Source: Candidatus Peregrinibacteria bacterium
Lineage (GTDB): Bacteria > Patescibacteriota > Gracilibacteria > UBA1369 > LOWO2-01-FULL-3
Length of the DNA stretch: 10,334 nt
Reading direction: 5' to 3'
NCBI GenBank assembly: GCA_016214225.1
Contig: JACROX010000035.1
Coordinates: 1-10,334 of the forward strand
Shown piece by piece: positions 154 to 6,439 of this stretch (positions within the stretch are counted from its first letter, which is position 1; every line of letters begins with the position of its first letter). The notes beneath the pieces are model-generated. The model was not told the DNA's origin. It saw nothing but the letters and a program-made list of their open reading frames with translations, and did not search any database. Both the position numbers and the translations under genes were made by a program.

Positions 154-1356
154 ATGAAGACAAAAACATTTAAAATTTGTACAGCTCTGGTTTCTCTAGC
201 CATTTTTTCAGTGGCAAACATGACTGCTTTTGCGGCTTCCGATAGCACAAAACCGAGCGATGTTGAAAATTTTAAAGGCACCGCCTTGGATGCGTCCGTA
301 AAACTGACTTGGGACGCGGCGACCGATAACGTGGCCGTTACAGGCTATAAAGTCTACTATGGACTTAAGCCTGTGGCAAAAAGCGGCGAAACTTACGATA
401 GTAACAAAGACGCGGGAAGTGTTCTTAATTATACGCTTACGGGGCTTACAAACGATAAAAAATATTATTTTTTATTTTTTTTCTATGATGCCGCCGGAAA
501 TGAAAGCGGCAGCTGGGCAAAGGAAATTTCTTTAACTCCGGTAAAAGGAGCGGCGGGAAGCGATAAAGAGGCTCCAAAAGTTTCCAGCGCGGTCGCGATG
601 AATAAGGAACAAGTTAAAGTTGTTTTTTCCGAGGCCGTTGTTCTTCCTCTGCAGGATCCGCAAGATGCCTTTACGGTGGAAGACGACAATTTTAAACCTT
701 TGGCTGTTTTAAAGGCTGAAATGGATAAGGATGATAAGGAGGAAAAGATTGTTGTTTTGACAACCGCGGCACAAAAAAAAGACGTAAAATATAAATTAAC
801 GGTTGGTATTGACCTGAAAGATAAAGCCGGAAATCCAATTATCAGCGGCACTTCCGACATAGCAGGATTTACCGGTAGCGATGCCGAGAAACCCGCTGAA
901 GATAAAAAAGCTCCCGAGGTTACAAAAGTCGAAAGCATGGACAGCACTCATGTTATTGTAACTTTTAACGAGGGCATTGTTTTGGGAATTGATCCTTCAA
1001 AGAATTTCAGCGTTATGCAAGAAGCCGATTCTAAAAAAACTTTGGATGTTTTGGGCGTTGAATTAGGCAAAAACGGCGCCGGTGTCGAAGACGCAAGCGC
1101 TATTGTTACAACTTCCGCGCAGGAAAATGTAAATTATGTTGTTGTTGTTTCCGGAGTAAAAGACGCTGACAGCAATGAAATAAATCCCGCGAAAGGAAGC
1201 GGTAAATTTATGGGCGCTTCCGCGAAGGCGGAAAAAGAAGGCGGTGATAAAATTAAAGATATTATCCCTCCAAAAGATGTTTTGAATTTACTCGCGAAGA
1301 AAACTCTTGACGCAAAAAACTATATTGTAACTTTGACATGGTCCATGCCAATATGA
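154..1356 (+). CDS. Secreted FN3 / Ig-like surface protein, truncated by a frameshift
   Basis: The 400-residue product starts with a clear signal peptide (basic start, hydrophobic core about 10-25, likely cleavage after AFA at 25-27). A fibronectin type III domain follows at about 34-130, with the W53, Y65 and DAAGNES (112-118) landmarks. Two bacterial Ig-like domains come next, about 138-241 and 251-356, each opening with a K/D-rich 'APxV' strand and containing 'VxFxE/VTFNE'. A linker and the first strands of a second FN3 domain (about 371-397, ending VTLTW) reach a TGA. Coding for the rest of that domain resumes at 1352 in another frame, with about 35 residues missing. This is probably an exported adhesin or surface-coat protein; its ligand is unknown. 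One oddity is a T-rich stretch coding YYFLFFFY in a core FN3 strand. The start is supported by the promoter at 95-123. The lost tail would have carried the anchor, so the product as written would be released rather than attached. Confidence 0.8.
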   Translation: MKTKTFKICTALVSLAIFSVANMTAFAASDSTKPSDVENFKGTALDASVKLTWDAATDNVAVTGYKVYYGLKPVAKSGETYDSNKDAGSVLNYTLTGLTNDKKYYFLFFFYDAAGNESGSWAKEISLTPVKGAAGSDKEAPKVSSAVAMNKEQVKVVFSEAVVLPLQDPQDAFTVEDDNFKPLAVLKAEMDKDDKEEKIVVLTTAAQKKDVKYKLTVGIDLKDKAGNPIISGTSDIAGFTGSDAEKPAEDKKAPEVTKVESMDSTHVIVTFNEGIVLGIDPSKNFSVMQEADSKKTLDVLGVELGKNGAGVEDASAIVTTSAQENVNYVVVVSGVKDADSNEINPAKGSGKFMGASAKAEKEGGDKIKDIIPPKDVLNLLAKKTLDAKNYIVTLTWSMPI

Positions 1357-1534
1357 AATTAAAAATATGGAACCGGGCGAGTATTGGTTCAAAGTTACCG
1401 AAAAAGATGTCGCCGGAAATGAAAGCAAGGGTTCCGTTGTAAAAGTAAAACTTGCCGGAACAGGGCCTGAATTGATTGGACTTTTTGCTCTATCTCTAGG
1501 ACTTGGCAGGGTTTTCACTCGCAGAAAAAAATAA
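1337..1534 (+). pseudogene. Out-of-frame C-terminal remnant of the FN3 surface protein with sorting-like tail
   Basis: This frame opens after a TGA at 1334-1336 and ends at TAA 1532-1534. From about 1352 it encodes the last strands of an FN3 domain, including YWFKVTEKDVAGNES, which matches the same part of the first FN3 domain upstream (YDAAGNES). A tail follows: TGPE (1460-1471), about 15 hydrophobic residues, then RRKK at the very end. That order (short polar motif, hydrophobic segment, basic end) is typical of C-terminal sorting signals recognised by sortase-like transpeptidases; the enzyme is not in this window. No start codon with a ribosome site is visible, so it is probably not translated separately. 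It belongs to the gene starting at 154. Confidence 0.75.
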
Positions 1535-1564
1535 AATATTTAATGAAAATTTAATATTTATTTA

Positions 1565-1596
1565 ATGCCCCTATGTAAAAGTAGGGGCATGTTTTT
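1565..1596 (+). terminator. Rho-independent terminator after the FN3 gene
   Basis: ATGCCCCTA (1565-1573) pairs perfectly with TAGGGGCAT (1582-1590) around an 8-nt loop, followed by GTTTTT (1591-1596). It sits 30 nt after the FN3 remnant's stop. The right arm also contains the AGGGG and the ATG (1589) that may start the next gene, so terminator and translation start overlap. Confidence 0.8.
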
Positions 1597-2443
1597 ATTG
1601 CCATCTAAAATAAAGAAAATTGTTTTTATTGCCATTGGATTGGTATATTTTGGCTTTTTTGTTTTAATTTCACAAATACCCGATAATAAATTTCATATTT
1701 ATTTTTTGGATATAGGACAAGGTGATTCTGTTTTAATAAAGACTCCGCAAAATCATCAGATGTTGATTGATGGAGGGCCAAACAGTTCCGTGATTGAAAG
1801 ATTGTCAGGCATTATGCCATTTTTTGACAATTCAATAGATTTTATTATTTTGACTCATCCACATGCGGATCATGTGAACGGGCTGATAGAAGTTTTGAAA
1901 AAATATTCCGTAAACGCGATTTTAATGACGGGTGTTTCTTCAAAAAGTCCTATTTATGAGGAGTTTTTACGTACCGTCTATAATAAAAAAATTCCTGTTT
2001 TTATCGCGGAATCAAAAACCGATTTTAAATTCGGAAATGTTTTTTTCGATGTTATCTATCCTTTCAATCAAATTTCCGGAGAATATTTTGAGAATCCGAA
2101 TAATTCGTCTGTTGCCGTTAAGGTGAGCTATAAGGATGAGCTTTCTCGCGTTTCCGAGAAAATTTTACTGACCGGCGATTTGCAGGATATCATTGAATCA
2201 AAGCTTGTGGACGCGGGAATTGATTTAAAGGCGAATATATTGAAAGCCGGCCATCATGGCAGCAAGAATGCTTCTTCTTTGAAATTTTTAAATAAAGTTA
2301 AGCCGGATTTTGCAGTAATTCAGTCCGGCAAGGATAATCGTTTCGGTCATCCTCATAAGCAAACTTTAGATAATCTAAAGAAAGCGGGAGTTAAAAAAAT
2401 TTATAGAAATGATATGGATGGAACTGTCGAGTTCGTATTTTGA
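1589..2443 (+). CDS. Membrane-anchored ComEC-like metallo-beta-lactamase-fold hydrolase
   Basis: From the ATG at 1589 this gives 284 residues: an N-terminal membrane segment (about 9-28) and then a complete MBL-fold domain like the C-terminal hydrolase domain of ComEC/Rec2. Visible landmarks are DIGQGDS (41-47), LIDGG (59-63), the metal motif THPHADH (89-95), LTGD (194-197), KAGHHGS (219-225) and FGHPH (252-256). The fold binds two metals and in ComEC is proposed to act on the non-transported DNA strand. Here there is no ComEC channel domain, so it is a stand-alone, probably extracytoplasmic enzyme; a nucleic-acid or phosphoester substrate is inference. An in-frame ATG at 1565 lies inside the terminator stem and is unlikely to be the start. 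A TTG at 1598, about 10 nt after AGGGG, is a credible alternative to 1589. No separate promoter is evident, so expression may depend on readthrough. Confidence 0.85.
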   Translation: MFLLPSKIKKIVFIAIGLVYFGFFVLISQIPDNKFHIYFLDIGQGDSVLIKTPQNHQMLIDGGPNSSVIERLSGIMPFFDNSIDFIILTHPHADHVNGLIEVLKKYSVNAILMTGVSSKSPIYEEFLRTVYNKKIPVFIAESKTDFKFGNVFFDVIYPFNQISGEYFENPNNSSVAVKVSYKDELSRVSEKILLTGDLQDIIESKLVDAGIDLKANILKAGHHGSKNASSLKFLNKVKPDFAVIQSGKDNRFGHPHKQTLDNLKKAGVKKIYRNDMDGTVEFVF

Positions 2444-2444
2444 A

Positions 2445-2567
2445 AGAATCTCTAAAAAACTATCATCTACTGTGTTGTCGAAAAATTTTGATTCTCCTGT
2501 ACATATTAGTACACTGCGAATCAAAATTTTTCTGCCGCCTTGTATCTGATAGTTTTTTAGAGATTCT
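2445..2567. terminator. 123-nt near-perfect palindrome, probable bidirectional terminator
   Basis: Two convergent genes end on either side of a long inverted repeat. The outer arms are 21 nt and perfect (2445-2465 with 2547-2567), and the inner arms are 15 nt and perfect (2480-2494 with 2518-2532). Both share the same centre (about 2506), and the strand between them pairs partly (TAC 2468-2470 with GTA 2542-2544 and scattered G-C/G-U pairs). A short TGTAC/GTACA stem caps it. It begins 1 nt after the hydrolase stop (2441-2443) and overlaps the murA stop (2566-2568). A-rich and T-rich tracts in the arms would act as U-tracts on both strands. Confidence 0.7.
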
Positions 2568-2877
2568 AAACGCGTTTTATTTTTGCCCCCAACAACTTAA
2601 GTTTTTCCTCTATTTTTTCGTATCCGCGATCTATGTAATTTATGTTTGAAATTTCCGTTTGTCCGTTCGCGATCAACGCGGCAATCACCATCGCGGCCCC
2701 GGCGCGGATATCACAACTCGCGATCGGAATCGCGGAAAGTTTTGTTGGGCCTATAATAAGCGCTTGATGAGGATTTAAAAATTCTATGCGCGCTCCCATT
2801 TTTTCCAATTCAAAAAGATAATTCAGACGTCCTTCAAATAATGTTTCAAATATTTTGCTGACACCATGAGCCTTGTC
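2566..2877 (-). pseudogene. murA: Frameshifted C-terminal part of murA
   Basis: This minus-strand frame opens directly after a TAG (2878-2880) and ends at TAG 2566-2568. It reads as the last quarter of UDP-N-acetylglucosamine 1-carboxyvinyltransferase: AHGVSKIFETLFEGR, then LNYLFELEKMGA, the IASCDIRAGAAMV segment (its Arg matches E. coli Arg397) and HIDRGY-type NYIDRGYEKIEEKL close to the end, as in other MurA proteins. Its frame differs from the N-terminal part, and about 20 residues between the two parts are missing. An internal ATG at 2806-2808 could start an 80-residue fragment, but that would hold no active site. Confidence 0.85.
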
Positions 2878-3761
2878 CTAAGTATCCTTACGGCATTCCA
2901 TTTTTCCGTGGGCGATATTTCCGCGTAATCTTTTCCAAGCTTAAATTTCACTCCGATTTCATCCAGTTTTTGCCAAAAACTGTCGAGATGAGCCGGATCA
3001 AATCCTTTAACAACAACATTTCCTTTTGTGGCTACAGCGGCTACAACAAAAGTCCCGGCCTCCAAATAGTCCCCCGTTACGCGATATTTAACGCCTTTAA
3101 GATTTTTTACTCCTTTAATTTTTAATATGTTTGTCCCGATTCCTGAAATTTTCGTGCCCATTTTATTTAAAAAATGACATAAGTCCTGTACGTGCGGTTC
3201 GGTTGCGGCAAGCCTTATTTCCGTATCTCCATTCGCCAAAACAGATGCCATAACGGCATTTTCCGTGGCCGTAACGCTTAATTCCGGAAGAACAACGGAC
3301 GTGCCCTTGAGGCTTTTAACTCTTATGTGAAGCCCTTCTTCATCATCCAAAATTTTACATCCCAATTTTTCAAAAGCGTATCTGTGCGCGTGAACCGATC
3401 TTTTCCCAAGCACGCATCCTCCGGGATAAGCCATTTTAATCTCACCAAAGCGTGGAAGCAGAGCTCCTACAATTAAAATTGACGCTCTCATTTTTTTTAC
3501 AAGATTTCCCTGAATTTTTTTCTGTTTTTTTTCTTTCGCGTCAATTGTCAGAGTTTTATTTTTGAATGTAACTTTTTCTACTATTGATTCTATTATTTTT
3601 GACATCGAATGAATGTCCTCTATATCCGGCACATTCTCCAGTATTGTTTTGCCTTTTGTTAAAAGCGCGGCACACATAATCGGCAGTGCGGCGTTTTTAG
3701 AGCCGCTTATCTTTATTTCACCCTTTAACGGCGTTCCCCCATTTATTATAAAATTGGCCAT
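2823..3761 (-). CDS. murA: MurA N-terminal three quarters, broken by deletion and frameshift
   Basis: MurA transfers enolpyruvate from PEP to UDP-GlcNAc, the first committed step of peptidoglycan synthesis in the cytoplasm. The 312-residue frame begins typically (SGSKNAALP with Lys22), has MRAS at 91-94, the PEP-binding loop YPGGCVLGKR with Cys116 (E. coli Cys115, so predicted fosfomycin-sensitive type) and DYLEAGTF at 231-238. It is family-like up to AVRI (290-293); the last 19 residues are out-of-frame nonsense. The true continuation is in another frame (2566-2877), and the missing 20 or so residues include the FPTDMQ-type segment carrying catalytic Asp305 of E. coli. Complete, the gene would encode about 415-420 residues, the usual length. 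Translated as written it should be inactive, so an intact copy elsewhere or an assembly error is expected. A good promoter lies upstream at 3785-3812. Confidence 0.9.
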   Translation of the reverse strand: MANFIINGGTPLKGEIKISGSKNAALPIMCAALLTKGKTILENVPDIEDIHSMSKIIESIVEKVTFKNKTLTIDAKEKKQKKIQGNLVKKMRASILIVGALLPRFGEIKMAYPGGCVLGKRSVHAHRYAFEKLGCKILDDEEGLHIRVKSLKGTSVVLPELSVTATENAVMASVLANGDTEIRLAATEPHVQDLCHFLNKMGTKISGIGTNILKIKGVKNLKGVKYRVTGDYLEAGTFVVAAVATKGNVVVKGFDPAHLDSFWQKLDEIGVKFKLGKDYAEISPTEKWNAVRILRTRLMVSAKYLKHYLKDV

Positions 3762-3784
3762 GTTTTTCTTAATTTGTGCCTACT

Positions 3785-3812
3785 ATTATAGCTATACCAT
3801 ATTTATTGTAAA
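3785..3812 (-). promoter_or_regulatory. Promoter of murA
   Basis: Minus strand TTTACA (3807-3812), 16-nt spacer and consensus TATAAT (3785-3790). The start point would be near 3778, giving a 17-nt leader before the murA ATG at 3761 with no good Shine-Dalgarno site. It is divergent from the promoter at 3851-3879. Confidence 0.65.
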
Positions 3813-3850
3813 TGGTCTATTGCACTATGGCCGGTTTTTGGCTTGAGTAA

Positions 3851-3879
3851 TTGATTTTTTGCCTTATTTTTGATAGAAT
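3851..3879 (+). promoter_or_regulatory. Promoter of the SLH surface-protein operon
   Basis: TTGATT (3851-3856), a 17-nt spacer and TAGAAT (3874-3879) preceded by TGA form an extended -10 promoter. The predicted leader of about 30 nt (from about 3886) is almost purely A with a few C and T, and has no Shine-Dalgarno site before the ATG at 3916. Confidence 0.65.
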
Positions 3880-3915
3880 TTAGGGATTTCAAACAAAAAT
3901 AAAAAGAAAAACAAA

Positions 3916-5187
3916 ATGAGAAGGTGGAAATTATTTTATGTTCTTTCTGGCATTATCGTTTCGGGATTACTGGTTAATTCATTTTTATCCAAAGAAAATG
4001 CCAGTGTTTTTCAAACCTCGGTTTTGCCTGTTATTAAGGGTATCGCGGATCAAAATCCTTTGGCTCCTCCTGATTTGTCTATAGAAAATATTGAATTGAA
4101 AAAAGTTTCAGACCCCACTTTTGATTCAAATTATTATAAATATAAGGCCTCTGTCGTAGTGCGAAATACAGGAGGAAACCTTGTTGACAGCAATGTGACT
4201 TTGCATGGAGACTTTGCTCAGAAATATGTTTATGTAAAAAATGTAGACAAAGGTTTTTCTCTTCCATCGGGGAAAAGTTATGCGATTGATAATTACGATA
4301 TAACTTTTGATGGAAATTATAACGGCGGTGAAATTCCCGTTACAATTGAGGTTCAAGACAAGGTGGACACAAATCTTGTAAACAATACTTTTAAAGTTGA
4401 GATTTTTGAACTTCCTCCAAAGCTTAATCCCGTGAAAATATCGGATATTCCCGAAGACGGGAAAGTTGTTTTAAATGTTAATTCGAAAAATTTGACTTAC
4501 AGGGATGATGATTTTTTGTTGTATACAAGAAATTCCACGTTAAATGATGAAAAAGTTATTTATTCCGAATCAAAAGGCAATGATGGCATGTACAGTTTTT
4601 ACGCGATCAATCCTTCGAAATCTTATTTTAAAAACGGGTTTGGCAGTGAAAAAGTTGATAATTCCGGCGAATATCCCGTGACAGCCGATTACGCGTACGT
4701 GAAGGCTGTTGATCCGAAAACCGGGTACTATGCCGTGAGCGATATTGTAAAATTAGCTCCTTCAAAAGAAATAAATCGAGCGGAATTCGCGAAAATTTTT
4801 GTGGATGAAATAGGAATTGAACCAAGTACTTACGCGGACAGCTATTATTCCGATGTCTTGAGTGATGATTGGTTTTTCCCTTATGTACAAACTTTATACG
4901 ATATCGGACTTTTAAATACGGACGTGCGTGAATATGAGCCCAATCAAGCAATGACACGCGGAGAAGTTTTGAAAATGGTTTTGACTTATTTTGACGCGGA
5001 CTTGGCGGTTCAGGACGACACTGTCCATTTTAAGGATGTGGATGAGGGGAATGACATTTATCCATATGCCGAAAGTTTGCTTGTAGCAGGTAAAGCGGAA
5101 GCTATCAGAGGTGAATTAAATCCCGAGCTCCCCGCCACAAAAGATTTTTTAATTTATCTTATAAATGAATATCGAAAGAGTAATTAA
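3916..5187 (+). CDS. Exported CARDB-like / SLH-repeat surface protein
   Basis: The 423-residue product starts with a basic tip and one hydrophobic segment (about 6-24), a signal peptide or anchor with no obvious cleavage site. A beta-rich domain at about 52-165 opens PPDLSIENIEL and includes ASVVVRNTGGNLV, the pattern of CARDB-type adhesion domains. A second beta-rich region follows (about 166-280). The C-terminus has S-layer-homology repeats: INRAEFAKIF (286-295), YSDV...DDWFFPYVQTLYDIGLL (311-333), YEPNQAMTRGEVLKMVL (340-356) and FKDVDEGNDIYPYAESL (372-388), followed by a degenerate third unit. SLH domains bind pyruvylated secondary cell-wall polymers in Gram-positives and peptidoglycan or LPS-linked sugars elsewhere, so wall attachment of an adhesion domain is the natural reading. 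It leads an operon, and its end overlaps the next gene by 23 nt. The domain class is fairly clear; the partner is unknown. Confidence 0.8.
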   Translation: MRRWKLFYVLSGIIVSGLLVNSFLSKENASVFQTSVLPVIKGIADQNPLAPPDLSIENIELKKVSDPTFDSNYYKYKASVVVRNTGGNLVDSNVTLHGDFAQKYVYVKNVDKGFSLPSGKSYAIDNYDITFDGNYNGGEIPVTIEVQDKVDTNLVNNTFKVEIFELPPKLNPVKISDIPEDGKVVLNVNSKNLTYRDDDFLLYTRNSTLNDEKVIYSESKGNDGMYSFYAINPSKSYFKNGFGSEKVDNSGEYPVTADYAYVKAVDPKTGYYAVSDIVKLAPSKEINRAEFAKIFVDEIGIEPSTYADSYYSDVLSDDWFFPYVQTLYDIGLLNTDVREYEPNQAMTRGEVLKMVLTYFDADLAVQDDTVHFKDVDEGNDIYPYAESLLVAGKAEAIRGELNPELPATKDFLIYLINEYRKSN

Positions 5188-5830
5188 AACTTACTTTATT
5201 TTTGTCATGTTCGTAGTGGCTGTTTCGATAGTTGGCTACAACACGCCAACCAAGGCCTATATGGCGAATGTTCTCGGCTATAATTTCAGTGTCGGCGAAA
5301 AATTTTCCGAATCTAAAAATGAAGAGAAACAAACCGCGGATTTTTTGACTTTCGCGGTAACGAATAATCCGAAAAAAACATTTGTGTTTGCCGGAGCTCA
5401 AAATTCCGAACTTATGAAACTTGTTTTCAGGTCGACTAAAAGTGATGTTATTTTAAGAAAAATTTCTTTCAAAATTGCGTTGATTGATCCGAAATACATT
5501 AAGAACGCGGGGCTTATTTATAAGGGAAATCTTGTTGCGGAAGGGGCGGTTAAGGATGGAAAATTGAATTTTGAGAATATGAATCACAAATTCGATAATA
5601 CCACCGAAGAATTTTTTTCTCTTTCAATAAGCTTAATCGATGATATCCCCGTTGGGCAAAGAATCAGGATGGATATTGAAAATCCCGATGATATTGTTAT
5701 CACCAATGGTGAAAATGAATTTAAATTACAGGCTTCTTATCCGATGAAAGGTAAATATTTAAGTGTCGTTCAAAAACGAACATGGGGCGTAAAAAAAGCC
5801 GCGAGGAAATCTCCTCCAAAGAAAAAATAA
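5165..5830 (+). CDS. Secreted beta-sandwich-like protein of unknown function with Lys-rich tail
   Basis: I do not recognise a named family. The 221-residue product has a signal sequence (hydrophobic stretch about 10-24, possible cleavage near TKA at 29-31). Its centre, about 75-185, has a pattern I associate with single modules of Patescibacterial surface proteins: polar strands such as ELMKLVFRST, then DVILRKISFKI, a 'ly-G-lv--G' turn (LIYKGNLVAEG), and a hydrophobic strand before GQRIRMDIENPDDIVI. The last 20 residues are very basic (RKSPPKKK end). Its ATG lies inside the last codons of the SLH gene (23-nt overlap, different frame), so translation is probably coupled and the two products likely work together at the cell surface. 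The basic tail could bind anionic wall polymer; that is inference. Confidence 0.7.
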   Translation: MNIERVIKTYFIFVMFVVAVSIVGYNTPTKAYMANVLGYNFSVGEKFSESKNEEKQTADFLTFAVTNNPKKTFVFAGAQNSELMKLVFRSTKSDVILRKISFKIALIDPKYIKNAGLIYKGNLVAEGAVKDGKLNFENMNHKFDNTTEEFFSLSISLIDDIPVGQRIRMDIENPDDIVITNGENEFKLQASYPMKGKYLSVVQKRTWGVKKAARKSPPKKK

Positions 5831-5852
5831 TCATTCAATAGTGGACGGCTAC

Positions 5853-6194
5853 TTACTCCATCGCTTCCAAATAACATTTGTCGCAGTAAATTATTTCAGA
5901 CCTATCTTTTTCAAAAGTCGTTTTAATCGGAGTTTTGCATTTCGCGCAGAGCCGGTCGTAAAGATGCCTTTTGTTTCTCATATTGAATCTTATTTTATGC
6001 CTACAGTCAGCGCATTTTAAAGCAATCGTTTCATTGTAATCAAATGGTGACATCTTGATCGGGAAAAATTGTCCCCATTCTCCAGTGCTTTTCATATGTT
6101 CTATTATTTTATCTCTTAAATTTTCATATTCTTCTTTTGAATATTTTTTATTGAATATGCAATATTCGGCATGTCGAAGTCCGACACATCCGAA
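5853..6194 (-). pseudogene. Frameshifted C-terminal part of the zinc-ribbon protein
   Basis: This frame carries the second half of the protein begun at 6439. It reads FGCVGLRHAEYC, then SKEEYE, HMKSTGEWGQFFPIKMSPF and DYNETIA, and then jumps without a frame change to LKCADCRHK at about 6018-6024. It ends with three Cys pairs (CADC, CAKC, CDKC) that form zinc-ribbon knuckles. In relatives as I remember them, a stretch of several dozen residues with its own Cys pair separates NET(I/V)A from the CPDCRHK motif, so a second, in-frame block appears lost here. An internal ATG (6093-6095) would start an 80-residue piece beginning MKSTGEW. The gene ends 22 nt from the convergent surface-protein gene; no clear terminator is seen between them. 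Confidence 0.7.
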
Positions 6195-6439
6195 TTGTCG
6201 TAAACTGTGAGAGATTTTTTAGACGAAAAAACAGATACGATGTCTTTCCCCGTGGCATCGCATTTGCGTTTGTACAGTGTTCTTTCATTTCTCCATGACA
6301 ATCTGCGCATTTGGCGGCAGTCCGGACAATAGTTCGGAGGAGGAACATTCATCTCCTTGTAAAAATTCACGTCTATATCCGTGATTGGAAAATCATTTCC
6401 GCAGTTTCCGCATTTTTTGGTTTCAACAATGTTTTCCAT
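6116..6439 (-). CDS. Zinc-ribbon protein, N-terminal part, broken by internal deletion
   Basis: The N-terminal region shows a family I associate with Patescibacteria: two Cys pairs, CGNC (10-13) and CPDC (38-41), with FPITDIDVNFYKEMNVP between them, followed by CRQMRRLSWRNER (41-53) and KRKCDATGKDI. Residues to about TVYD (78-81) are family-like; 82-107 are out of frame. The proper continuation is at 5853-6194 in another frame, and the middle of the protein, which I recall as well over 100 residues rich in Cys and aromatic residues, is absent. Its biochemical role is unknown; zinc binding follows from the cysteines, and nucleic-acid binding is a guess. The ATG is 9 nt after the yifB stop, so it is probably the second gene of a yifB operon. 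No Shine-Dalgarno site is visible. Confidence 0.7.
   Translation of the reverse strand: MENIVETKKCGNCGNDFPITDIDVNFYKEMNVPPPNYCPDCRQMRRLSWRNERTLYKRKCDATGKDIVSVFSSKKSLTVYDNSDVSDFDMPNIAYSIKNIQKKNMKI

What the first reader, a model, noticed from the sequence alone, without database searches (positions are those of the whole stretch)
1337..6199. Three separate genes share the same lesion: a missing internal block with clean coding on both sides
The FN3 gene (near 1342-1352), murA (2872-2882) and the zinc-ribbon gene (6195-6196 and again about 6018-6024) each run family-like up to a point and resume family-like further on, with no other stops or frameshifts. Estimated losses differ widely: about 105 nt, about 50 nt, and two larger blocks. 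Other recognisable genes here (yifB, yraN, the hydrolase) look full length. Random decay usually also leaves point stops; their absence suggests either very recent deletions or dropped sequence in the assembly.
Basis: partly seen in the sequence, partly recalled or inferred. Interest (0 to 1): 0.72.

Follow-up and report, generated by a model that had tools for sequence, protein, structure and literature searches.

The report
Missing gene pieces from faulty assembly
Three genes on this short bacterial contig lack an internal block, but the same kind of clean loss turns up in core genes elsewhere in this one draft genome and not in the relatives checked, so it is most likely an assembly error rather than biology.

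Summary
The FN3 gene lacks about 98-101 nt, murA 58 nt, and the zinc-ribbon gene about 840-860 nt (frame-changing) and about 228 nt (in frame). Relatives keep the blocks: 119 of 119 listed murA homologues and 117 of 119 listed FN3 homologues, the other two ending before the joint.

It is not peculiar to this window, which is one whole contig of a 795-kb, 121-contig draft genome whose relatives are Peregrinibacteria/Gracilibacteria. In the window plus 34 readable contigs (of 40 sampled), 15 of 177 genes with a reference counterpart carry a strict frame-changing block loss; in contigs of three sister genomes, 0 of 186. Genes hit outside the window include recA, gltX, dnaG, pheT, murJ and ribBA. 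Lesioned genes are no more diverged than the rest. The same assembly has short N runs, a tsaD-like piece inside uvrA and in-frame stops. A conserved murA pattern from the missing block has no match in the assembly but one in each of four relatives.

Best explanation: ends joined without Ns across small gaps in a poor scaffolded assembly. Genuine recent deletion is very unlikely. No reads were available.

The parts
154..1349 (+). FN3-domain gene, part before the joint (residues 1 to about 398)
   Evidence: PF00041 hit; best homologue 489 aa, 60% identical
1346..1351 (+). Joint 1: about 98-101 nt missing, frame changes
   Evidence: 117 of 119 listed homologues keep the block; 2 end before it
1350..1534 (+). 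FN3-domain gene, part after the joint, in another frame, up to its stop
   Evidence: G012 relative residues 432-491 align at 1352-1531
2874..3761 (-). murA, part before the joint
   Evidence: PF00275 E 2.5e-57; the 119 other listed homologues are 60-69% identical
2873..2874 (-). Joint 2: 58 nt missing, frame changes
   Evidence: 119 of 119 listed homologues keep the block, 114 give exactly 58 nt
2566..2873 (-). murA C-terminal part in another frame
   Evidence: PF00275 E 3.2e-15, profile 326-417; 84% identical to G012
6195..6439 (-). Zinc-ribbon gene, N-terminal part
   Evidence: PF13451 at its cut-off; matches relatives' residues up to about 77-86
6194..6196 (-). Joint 3: about 840-860 nt missing, frame changes
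   Evidence: in the ten best relatives (529-562 aa) the best-scoring next piece starts at residue 353-373; 859 nt against G012
6018..6024 (-). Joint 4: about 228 nt missing, in frame
   Evidence: L025 relative residues 421 and 493 abut here
5853..6193 (-). Zinc-ribbon gene, C-terminal parts (two pieces in one frame)
   Evidence: PF23477 and PF13453 hits below their cut-offs

Best explanation
The blocks are missing from the assembly, not from the organism. In this low-quality scaffolded draft genome, contig ends on either side of short unsequenced or unresolved gaps, mostly about 40-170 nt, were joined end to end with no Ns, leaving clean frame-changing or in-frame losses inside genes. Shown: the losses, their recurrence across the sampled contigs, their absence in the sister contigs tested, the core genes hit, and other defects in the same assembly. 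Inferred: that the join was made by a scaffolder or gap closer at low read coverage; the software and the reads are unknown. The confidence given is for an assembly artefact of any kind; joining across gaps I hold for the likelier form, at about 0.7.
For: (1) Relatives keep the blocks: murA 119 of 119, FN3 117 of 119 (these are the best 120 listed, own entry left out, of 2,261 and 493 found). The ten best zinc-ribbon relatives are 529-562 aa. (2) The lesion recurs: 15 of 177 genes (16 joints, 12 of 35 readable contigs, window included) against 0 of 186 genes in sampled contigs of G008, G005 and G013 under the same test. Fisher p = 1.5e-5; without the window 12 of 167 against 0 of 186, p = 1e-4. 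The strict rule was set after I had seen the raw joints; the raw counts are 26 joints against 0. (3) Genes hit outside the window include RecA, GltX, DnaG, PheT, MurJ, RibBA, PPDK and HrcA. (4) Lesioned genes are as conserved as the rest: median identity 61.6% against 56.9%, Mann-Whitney p = 0.54. (5) The sampled G000 contigs hold 5 internal N runs of 8-119 nt in 236,859 readable bases; none in 312,750 sister bases or in 1.2 Mb of G012. At one of them (L120) the gene suggests a gap of about 3 nt where 60 Ns stand. (6) uvrA in L080 carries an extra 78 nt that reads as TsaD. Glutamate synthase in L114 has an exact 8-nt tandem duplication at a frame joint. ClpP in L118 has an in-frame TAA. (7) A conserved pattern for the missing murA block has no match in the whole assembly, while it occurs once in each of four relatives. 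(8) The strict losses vary freely in size: 43, 58, 61, 62, 62, 67, 70, 94, 98, 109, 122, 128, 149, 172, 322, 859 nt. That none is a multiple of three follows from the frame-change rule and is no evidence in itself.
Against: No reads could be mapped. At one N run (L110) the gap size looks about right, 24 Ns where I estimate 16-22 nt, which does not explain why other gaps of 40-170 nt carry no Ns; the other three N runs were not sized. Short tandem duplications, expected if overlapping ends were butted together, are not clearly in excess: 7.2 per 100 kb against 2.5-6.7 in four other genomes. In-frame gaps of 10 residues or more are not in excess either: 30 in 61,283 aa against 28 in 66,164 aa, although one third of random losses should be in frame. 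The genus has no other genome among those searched, so the comparison is with other genera of the family.
Confidence: 0.95

Rival explanations
1. Real, very recent block deletions in the sampled lineage: a genome in decay in which FN3, murA and the zinc-ribbon gene have just been inactivated.
For: The joints are clean and the flanks are still family-like. No N lies in the window.
Against: The same lesion is found in recA, gltX, dnaG, pheT, murJ and others on other contigs. A cell could hardly have lost all of these at once. Lesioned genes show no extra divergence. Faults of other kinds sit in the same assembly.
Confidence: 0.02
2. Lineage-specific natural variation: members of these families that simply lack the blocks, so nothing is broken.
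For: FN3 and zinc-ribbon proteins do vary in length between relatives.
Against: Three of the four losses change the reading frame, so no continuous product results. None of the 119 murA homologues compared lacks the block.
Confidence: 0.01
3. A different form of assembly fault: collapse of internal repeats, or false joins on short overlaps, rather than gaps closed by a scaffolder. This applies most to the zinc-ribbon gene. (The confidence is a share within the artefact reading, not an addition to it.)
For: The zinc-ribbon family is multicopy, 5 to 33 matches in each of the 22 relatives that match, and its N- and C-terminal ends align to the same window stretches. A tsaD/uvrA chimera in L080 joins where about 8-11 nt read family-like in both frames (my reading).
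Against: Aligned ends meet within 5 nt at 9 of the 16 strict joints, so little shared sequence is visible there. I did not test the murA, FN3, recA or gltX joints for repeats in the missing blocks, since those are not in the assembly.
Confidence: 0.25

Closest known systems
Local assembly errors and scaffolding-gap errors in metagenome-assembled genomes (Genome Res. 2020, PMC7111523; I saw passages only)
   Same: Errors inside protein-coding genes of draft metagenome genomes, including a candidate-phyla genome for which 13 such errors were reported; N gaps at joins; [quoted passage not shown]
   Different: The passages I saw describe consensus regions lacking read support, Ns inserted despite overlap, and wrong repeat numbers. 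Clean loss of 40-170 nt without Ns is not described in them in those words. The assembler used here is unknown.
Pseudogenes in reduced genomes (general knowledge)
   Same: Genes interrupted by frame changes.
   Different: Core genes are hit and the flanks are as conserved as intact genes.

Membership tests
Assembly artefact (collapsed gap / local misassembly) | Missing block is present in relatives | tested here: met
   murA 119 of 119, FN3 117 of 119 with 2 ending before the joint
Assembly artefact (collapsed gap / local misassembly) | Same lesion class scattered over the same assembly and absent from comparable assemblies | tested here: met
   15 of 177 genes against 0 of 186; sample is 40 of the other 120 contigs, 6 of which read all N, and 40 contigs of three sister genomes, 4 of which read all N
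Assembly artefact (collapsed gap / local misassembly) | Hits genes regardless of necessity | tested here: met
   RecA, GltX, DnaG, PheT, MurJ and others; necessity is general knowledge
Assembly artefact (collapsed gap / local misassembly) | Joint unsupported by reads | not testable with these tools
   No reads available
Assembly artefact (collapsed gap / local misassembly) | Other faults in the same assembly (N runs, chimera, in-frame stops) | tested here: met
Assembly artefact (collapsed gap / local misassembly) | About one third of losses in frame, as for random lengths | tested here: inconclusive
   no excess of in-frame gaps of 10 residues or more, 30 in 61,283 aa against 28 in 66,164 aa
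Pseudogene formed by decay | Relaxed conservation of the broken genes | tested here: not met
   median identity 61.6% lesioned, 56.9% others, p = 0.54
Pseudogene formed by decay | Dispensable genes preferentially broken | tested here: not met
   core genes among the hits

The most novel reading that the evidence does not exclude
The sampled population truly carries many recent block deletions in core genes, recA among them, as might be seen in a repair-deficient, dying or host-rescued lineage sampled mid-collapse.
Probability: 0.02. Interest if true: 0.85.

Novelty: not a real feature. Interest (0 to 1): 0.1.

Why it matters
It warns that 'broken' murA, recA, gltX and similar genes in this draft genome should not be read as gene loss or host dependence in this lineage. 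A cheap test (two-frame joints against a good relative) exposes such an assembly, although its completeness and contamination figures (83.88 and 0.85) do not.

Tried and rejected
Second murA copy: the C-terminal EPSP-synthase hit on contig C22 lies at a contig end next to a reading that looks like shikimate kinase (my reading, names recalled). I take it for aroA, not the missing part of murA.

Missing block elsewhere in the assembly: the murA pattern gives 0 hits in G000 and one hit in each of four relatives. A RecA pattern also gives 0 in G000, but I ran no positive control for it, so it carries little weight.

Tandem duplications as a general sign of butted overlapping ends: no clear excess. 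In-frame losses: no excess. Both are results against the simplest form of the mechanism.

Other-code reading of the internal stops: the stops in the 13 cases looked at were TAA, TAG and TGA alike, so I did not pursue a recoded codon.

An independent copy of the same organism: the best other murA is 69% identical and the best other FN3 60% (only the about 8,000 candidates sharing most words were scored). The genome scan may leave out the window's own and very near records.

Joints dropped before the strict count: 10 of the 26 raw joints. They are losses of 29 nt (L076), 47 nt with pieces 127 nt apart (L108), 68 nt with pieces 46 nt apart (L110), 447 nt in frame (L110), about 5 nt (L114), and five with no net loss (L076 twice, L114, L110, and L120, where the N run lies). 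The two L076 cases of one extra base lie in or near A runs.

Choice of contigs: not random. C22 and C57 of G000 were taken partly because earlier searches had hit them; C57 (L078) gives 1 of the 15 genes and 2 of the 16 joints. Some sister contigs (G008 C44, C49, C54; G013 C87, C88; G005 C2, C5) had likewise been hit before.

An earlier count said that 7 sampled contigs read all N and that the tsaD/uvrA overlap is about 20 nt. On checking it is 6 contigs and about 8-11 nt.

Full report
What the window is. The 10,334 bases are one whole contig, number 23 of 121, of a draft genome of 795,301 bases with completeness 83.88 and contamination 0.85. Relatives named by the databases are mostly Candidatus Peregrinibacteria and Gracilibacteria. 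No close relative turned up: the best other murA is 69% identical and the best other FN3 protein 60%. Gene order (FN3, MBL protein, murA, SLH protein, a small gene, yifB, an unnamed gene, yraN, dnaB) is the same in relative G012, contig 4, 28187-39012, except that no ORF of 100 aa or more stands there in the place of the zinc-ribbon gene (YifB, YraN and DnaB named by NCBIfam, SLH, FN3 and the MBL fold by Pfam).

The observation. I compared the listed murA and FN3 homologues (119 each, the best 120 of 2,261 and of 493, the window's own entry left out) with the window in all frames. All 119 murA homologues align in two frames around 2873/2874; 114 of them put the loss at exactly 58 nt, the other 5 at 55-67 nt. 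Of 119 FN3 homologues, 117 show a two-frame joint near 1350 with 89-128 nt missing (39 at 98, 50 at 101); the other two are 347 and 327 aa long and end before the joint. The zinc-ribbon gene was compared with 23 cysteine-rich ORFs of relatives. In the ten best, the N-terminal piece matches up to residue 77-86 and the best-scoring next piece starts at residue 353-373, in another frame. In 7 of those ten the next piece also matches, less well, from residue about 201-222, because the protein repeats itself, so the size of this loss is the least certain. The second joint, near 6020, is in frame and skips 71 residues by the aligned ends (about 76 by my arithmetic) against the L025 relative.

Is it only here? 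I took 40 of the other 120 contigs of the same assembly. Six read all N, leaving 236,859 readable bases with the window, about 30% of the assembly. As a yardstick I used 1,014 ORFs of at least 100 aa from 1.2 Mb of the relative G012, and ran the same test on contigs of three sister genomes: G008 and G013, listed with about 130 and 140 contigs, and G005 with about 70 (312,750 readable bases). The raw test gave 26 alignment joints in 177 G000 genes (25 frame-changing, some of them with little or no loss or in weakly similar genes) and none in 186 sister genes. With a strict rule, set after I had seen the raw joints (frame change, at least 40 nt missing, aligned pieces meeting within 35 nt), 16 joints in 15 genes on 12 contigs remain, against none (Fisher p = 1.5e-5). 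Leaving the window out, 12 of 167 against 0 of 186 (p = 1e-4). With identity of at least 40%, 14 of 154 against 0 of 145 (p = 1e-4; without the window 12 of 148, p = 4e-4). Lesioned and other genes are equally conserved (median identity 61.6% and 56.9%, p = 0.54).

Which genes? Outside the window, NCBIfam names the G012 counterparts of the strict cases as MurJ, RibBA, pyruvate phosphate dikinase, a GlmU-like protein, PheT, RecA, DnaG, HrcA and GltX, plus a protein with weak peptidoglycan-peptidase matches; one has no NCBIfam match (L106, counterpart in L087), and the L078 gene is another CxxC zinc-ribbon protein, like the one in the window, with a weak match below its cut-off. GAPDH in L114 has a loss of about 5 nt. 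That a cell lacking working RecA, primase, GltX, PheT, MurA and MurJ all at once is not credible is general knowledge, not a test.

Other defects of the same assembly. Five short N runs (8, 12, 24, 119 and 60 nt) lie inside sampled G000 contigs and none in the sister contigs or in 1.2 Mb of G012, whole-contig Ns aside. I take them for scaffold gaps; that they are operators' masks cannot be excluded but is unlikely at such lengths. In L080 the uvrA gene holds 78 extra nt with two stops, which read in another frame as TsaD residues (families named). In L114 the glutamate synthase frame breaks at an exact 8-nt tandem duplication. In L118 an in-frame TAA replaces a residue in a well conserved stretch of ClpP; that this is the catalytic serine is recalled, not tested. 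Aligned segments with stops number 14 of 206 in G000 and 5 of 191 in the sisters; several of the 14 are overextended ends or N-run cases.

Mechanism. The pieces meet almost bluntly: at 9 of 16 strict joints the aligned ends meet within 5 nt. The missing murA block, sought by a conserved pattern, has no match in the assembly, while each of four relatives has it once. The simplest account is that ends of neighbouring contigs were put together across short gaps without Ns. One N run (L120) seems some 57 nt too long for its gene and another (L110) about right (24 Ns for an estimated 16-22 nt); three were not sized. Against the simplest form stand the lack of a clear excess of tandem duplications and of in-frame losses. 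Repeat collapse may account for the zinc-ribbon gene instead. Either way the fault most likely lies in the assembly.

What is known. Passages of PMC7111523 (the rest not read) describe local assembly errors and scaffold-gap faults in metagenome genomes, including a candidate-phyla genome with 13, and say that such errors put incorrect protein-coding sequences into databases. The case here is therefore an instance of a known kind of problem, not a biological novelty.

Verdict. A by-product, a dispersed palindromic element, is told under noticed in passing and may deserve its own look.

Noticed in passing
window 2445-2567 (between the MBL gene and murA): A nested palindrome of about 123 nt (RNA fold -54.9 kcal/mol, z -13.4) that belongs to a dispersed family. 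A DNA search finds 14 places in this genome plus one short partial, and matches in 11 of 30 genomes of the taxonomic family, own included. A covariance model built from 8 copies matches in 17 of 30 genomes at E up to 1e-4, own included, 1 to 57 matches each, both strands counted. In the 8 copies 23 of 46 pairs show changes on both sides; a DNA palindrome would show this too. None of the 8 overlaps a gene aligned to G012 by more than 10 nt. No Rfam match in the window up to E 0.5, no Y1 transposase match in this genome. It looks like an ERIC- or MITE-like repeat (names recalled). One paper search listed 2 papers, neither read.
   Followed up: partly
L118:2446 (G000 contig 65): ClpP gene with a single in-frame TAA in a well conserved stretch.
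   Followed up: no
L080:3241-3420 (G000 contig 80): uvrA interrupted by 78 nt that read as TsaD in another frame, a chimeric insert.
   Followed up: partly
L067, L108, L110, L117, L120: Short N runs of 8, 12, 24, 119 and 60 nt inside contigs of this assembly, at least those of L110 and L120 within genes.
   Followed up: partly
window 5853-6439 and relatives: The zinc-ribbon (treble-clef, CxxC) family is strongly multicopy: 5 to 33 matches to the 80-aa query in each of 22 relatives, 9 in this genome, and none at E up to 0.001 in 8 of the 31 genomes searched.
   Followed up: no
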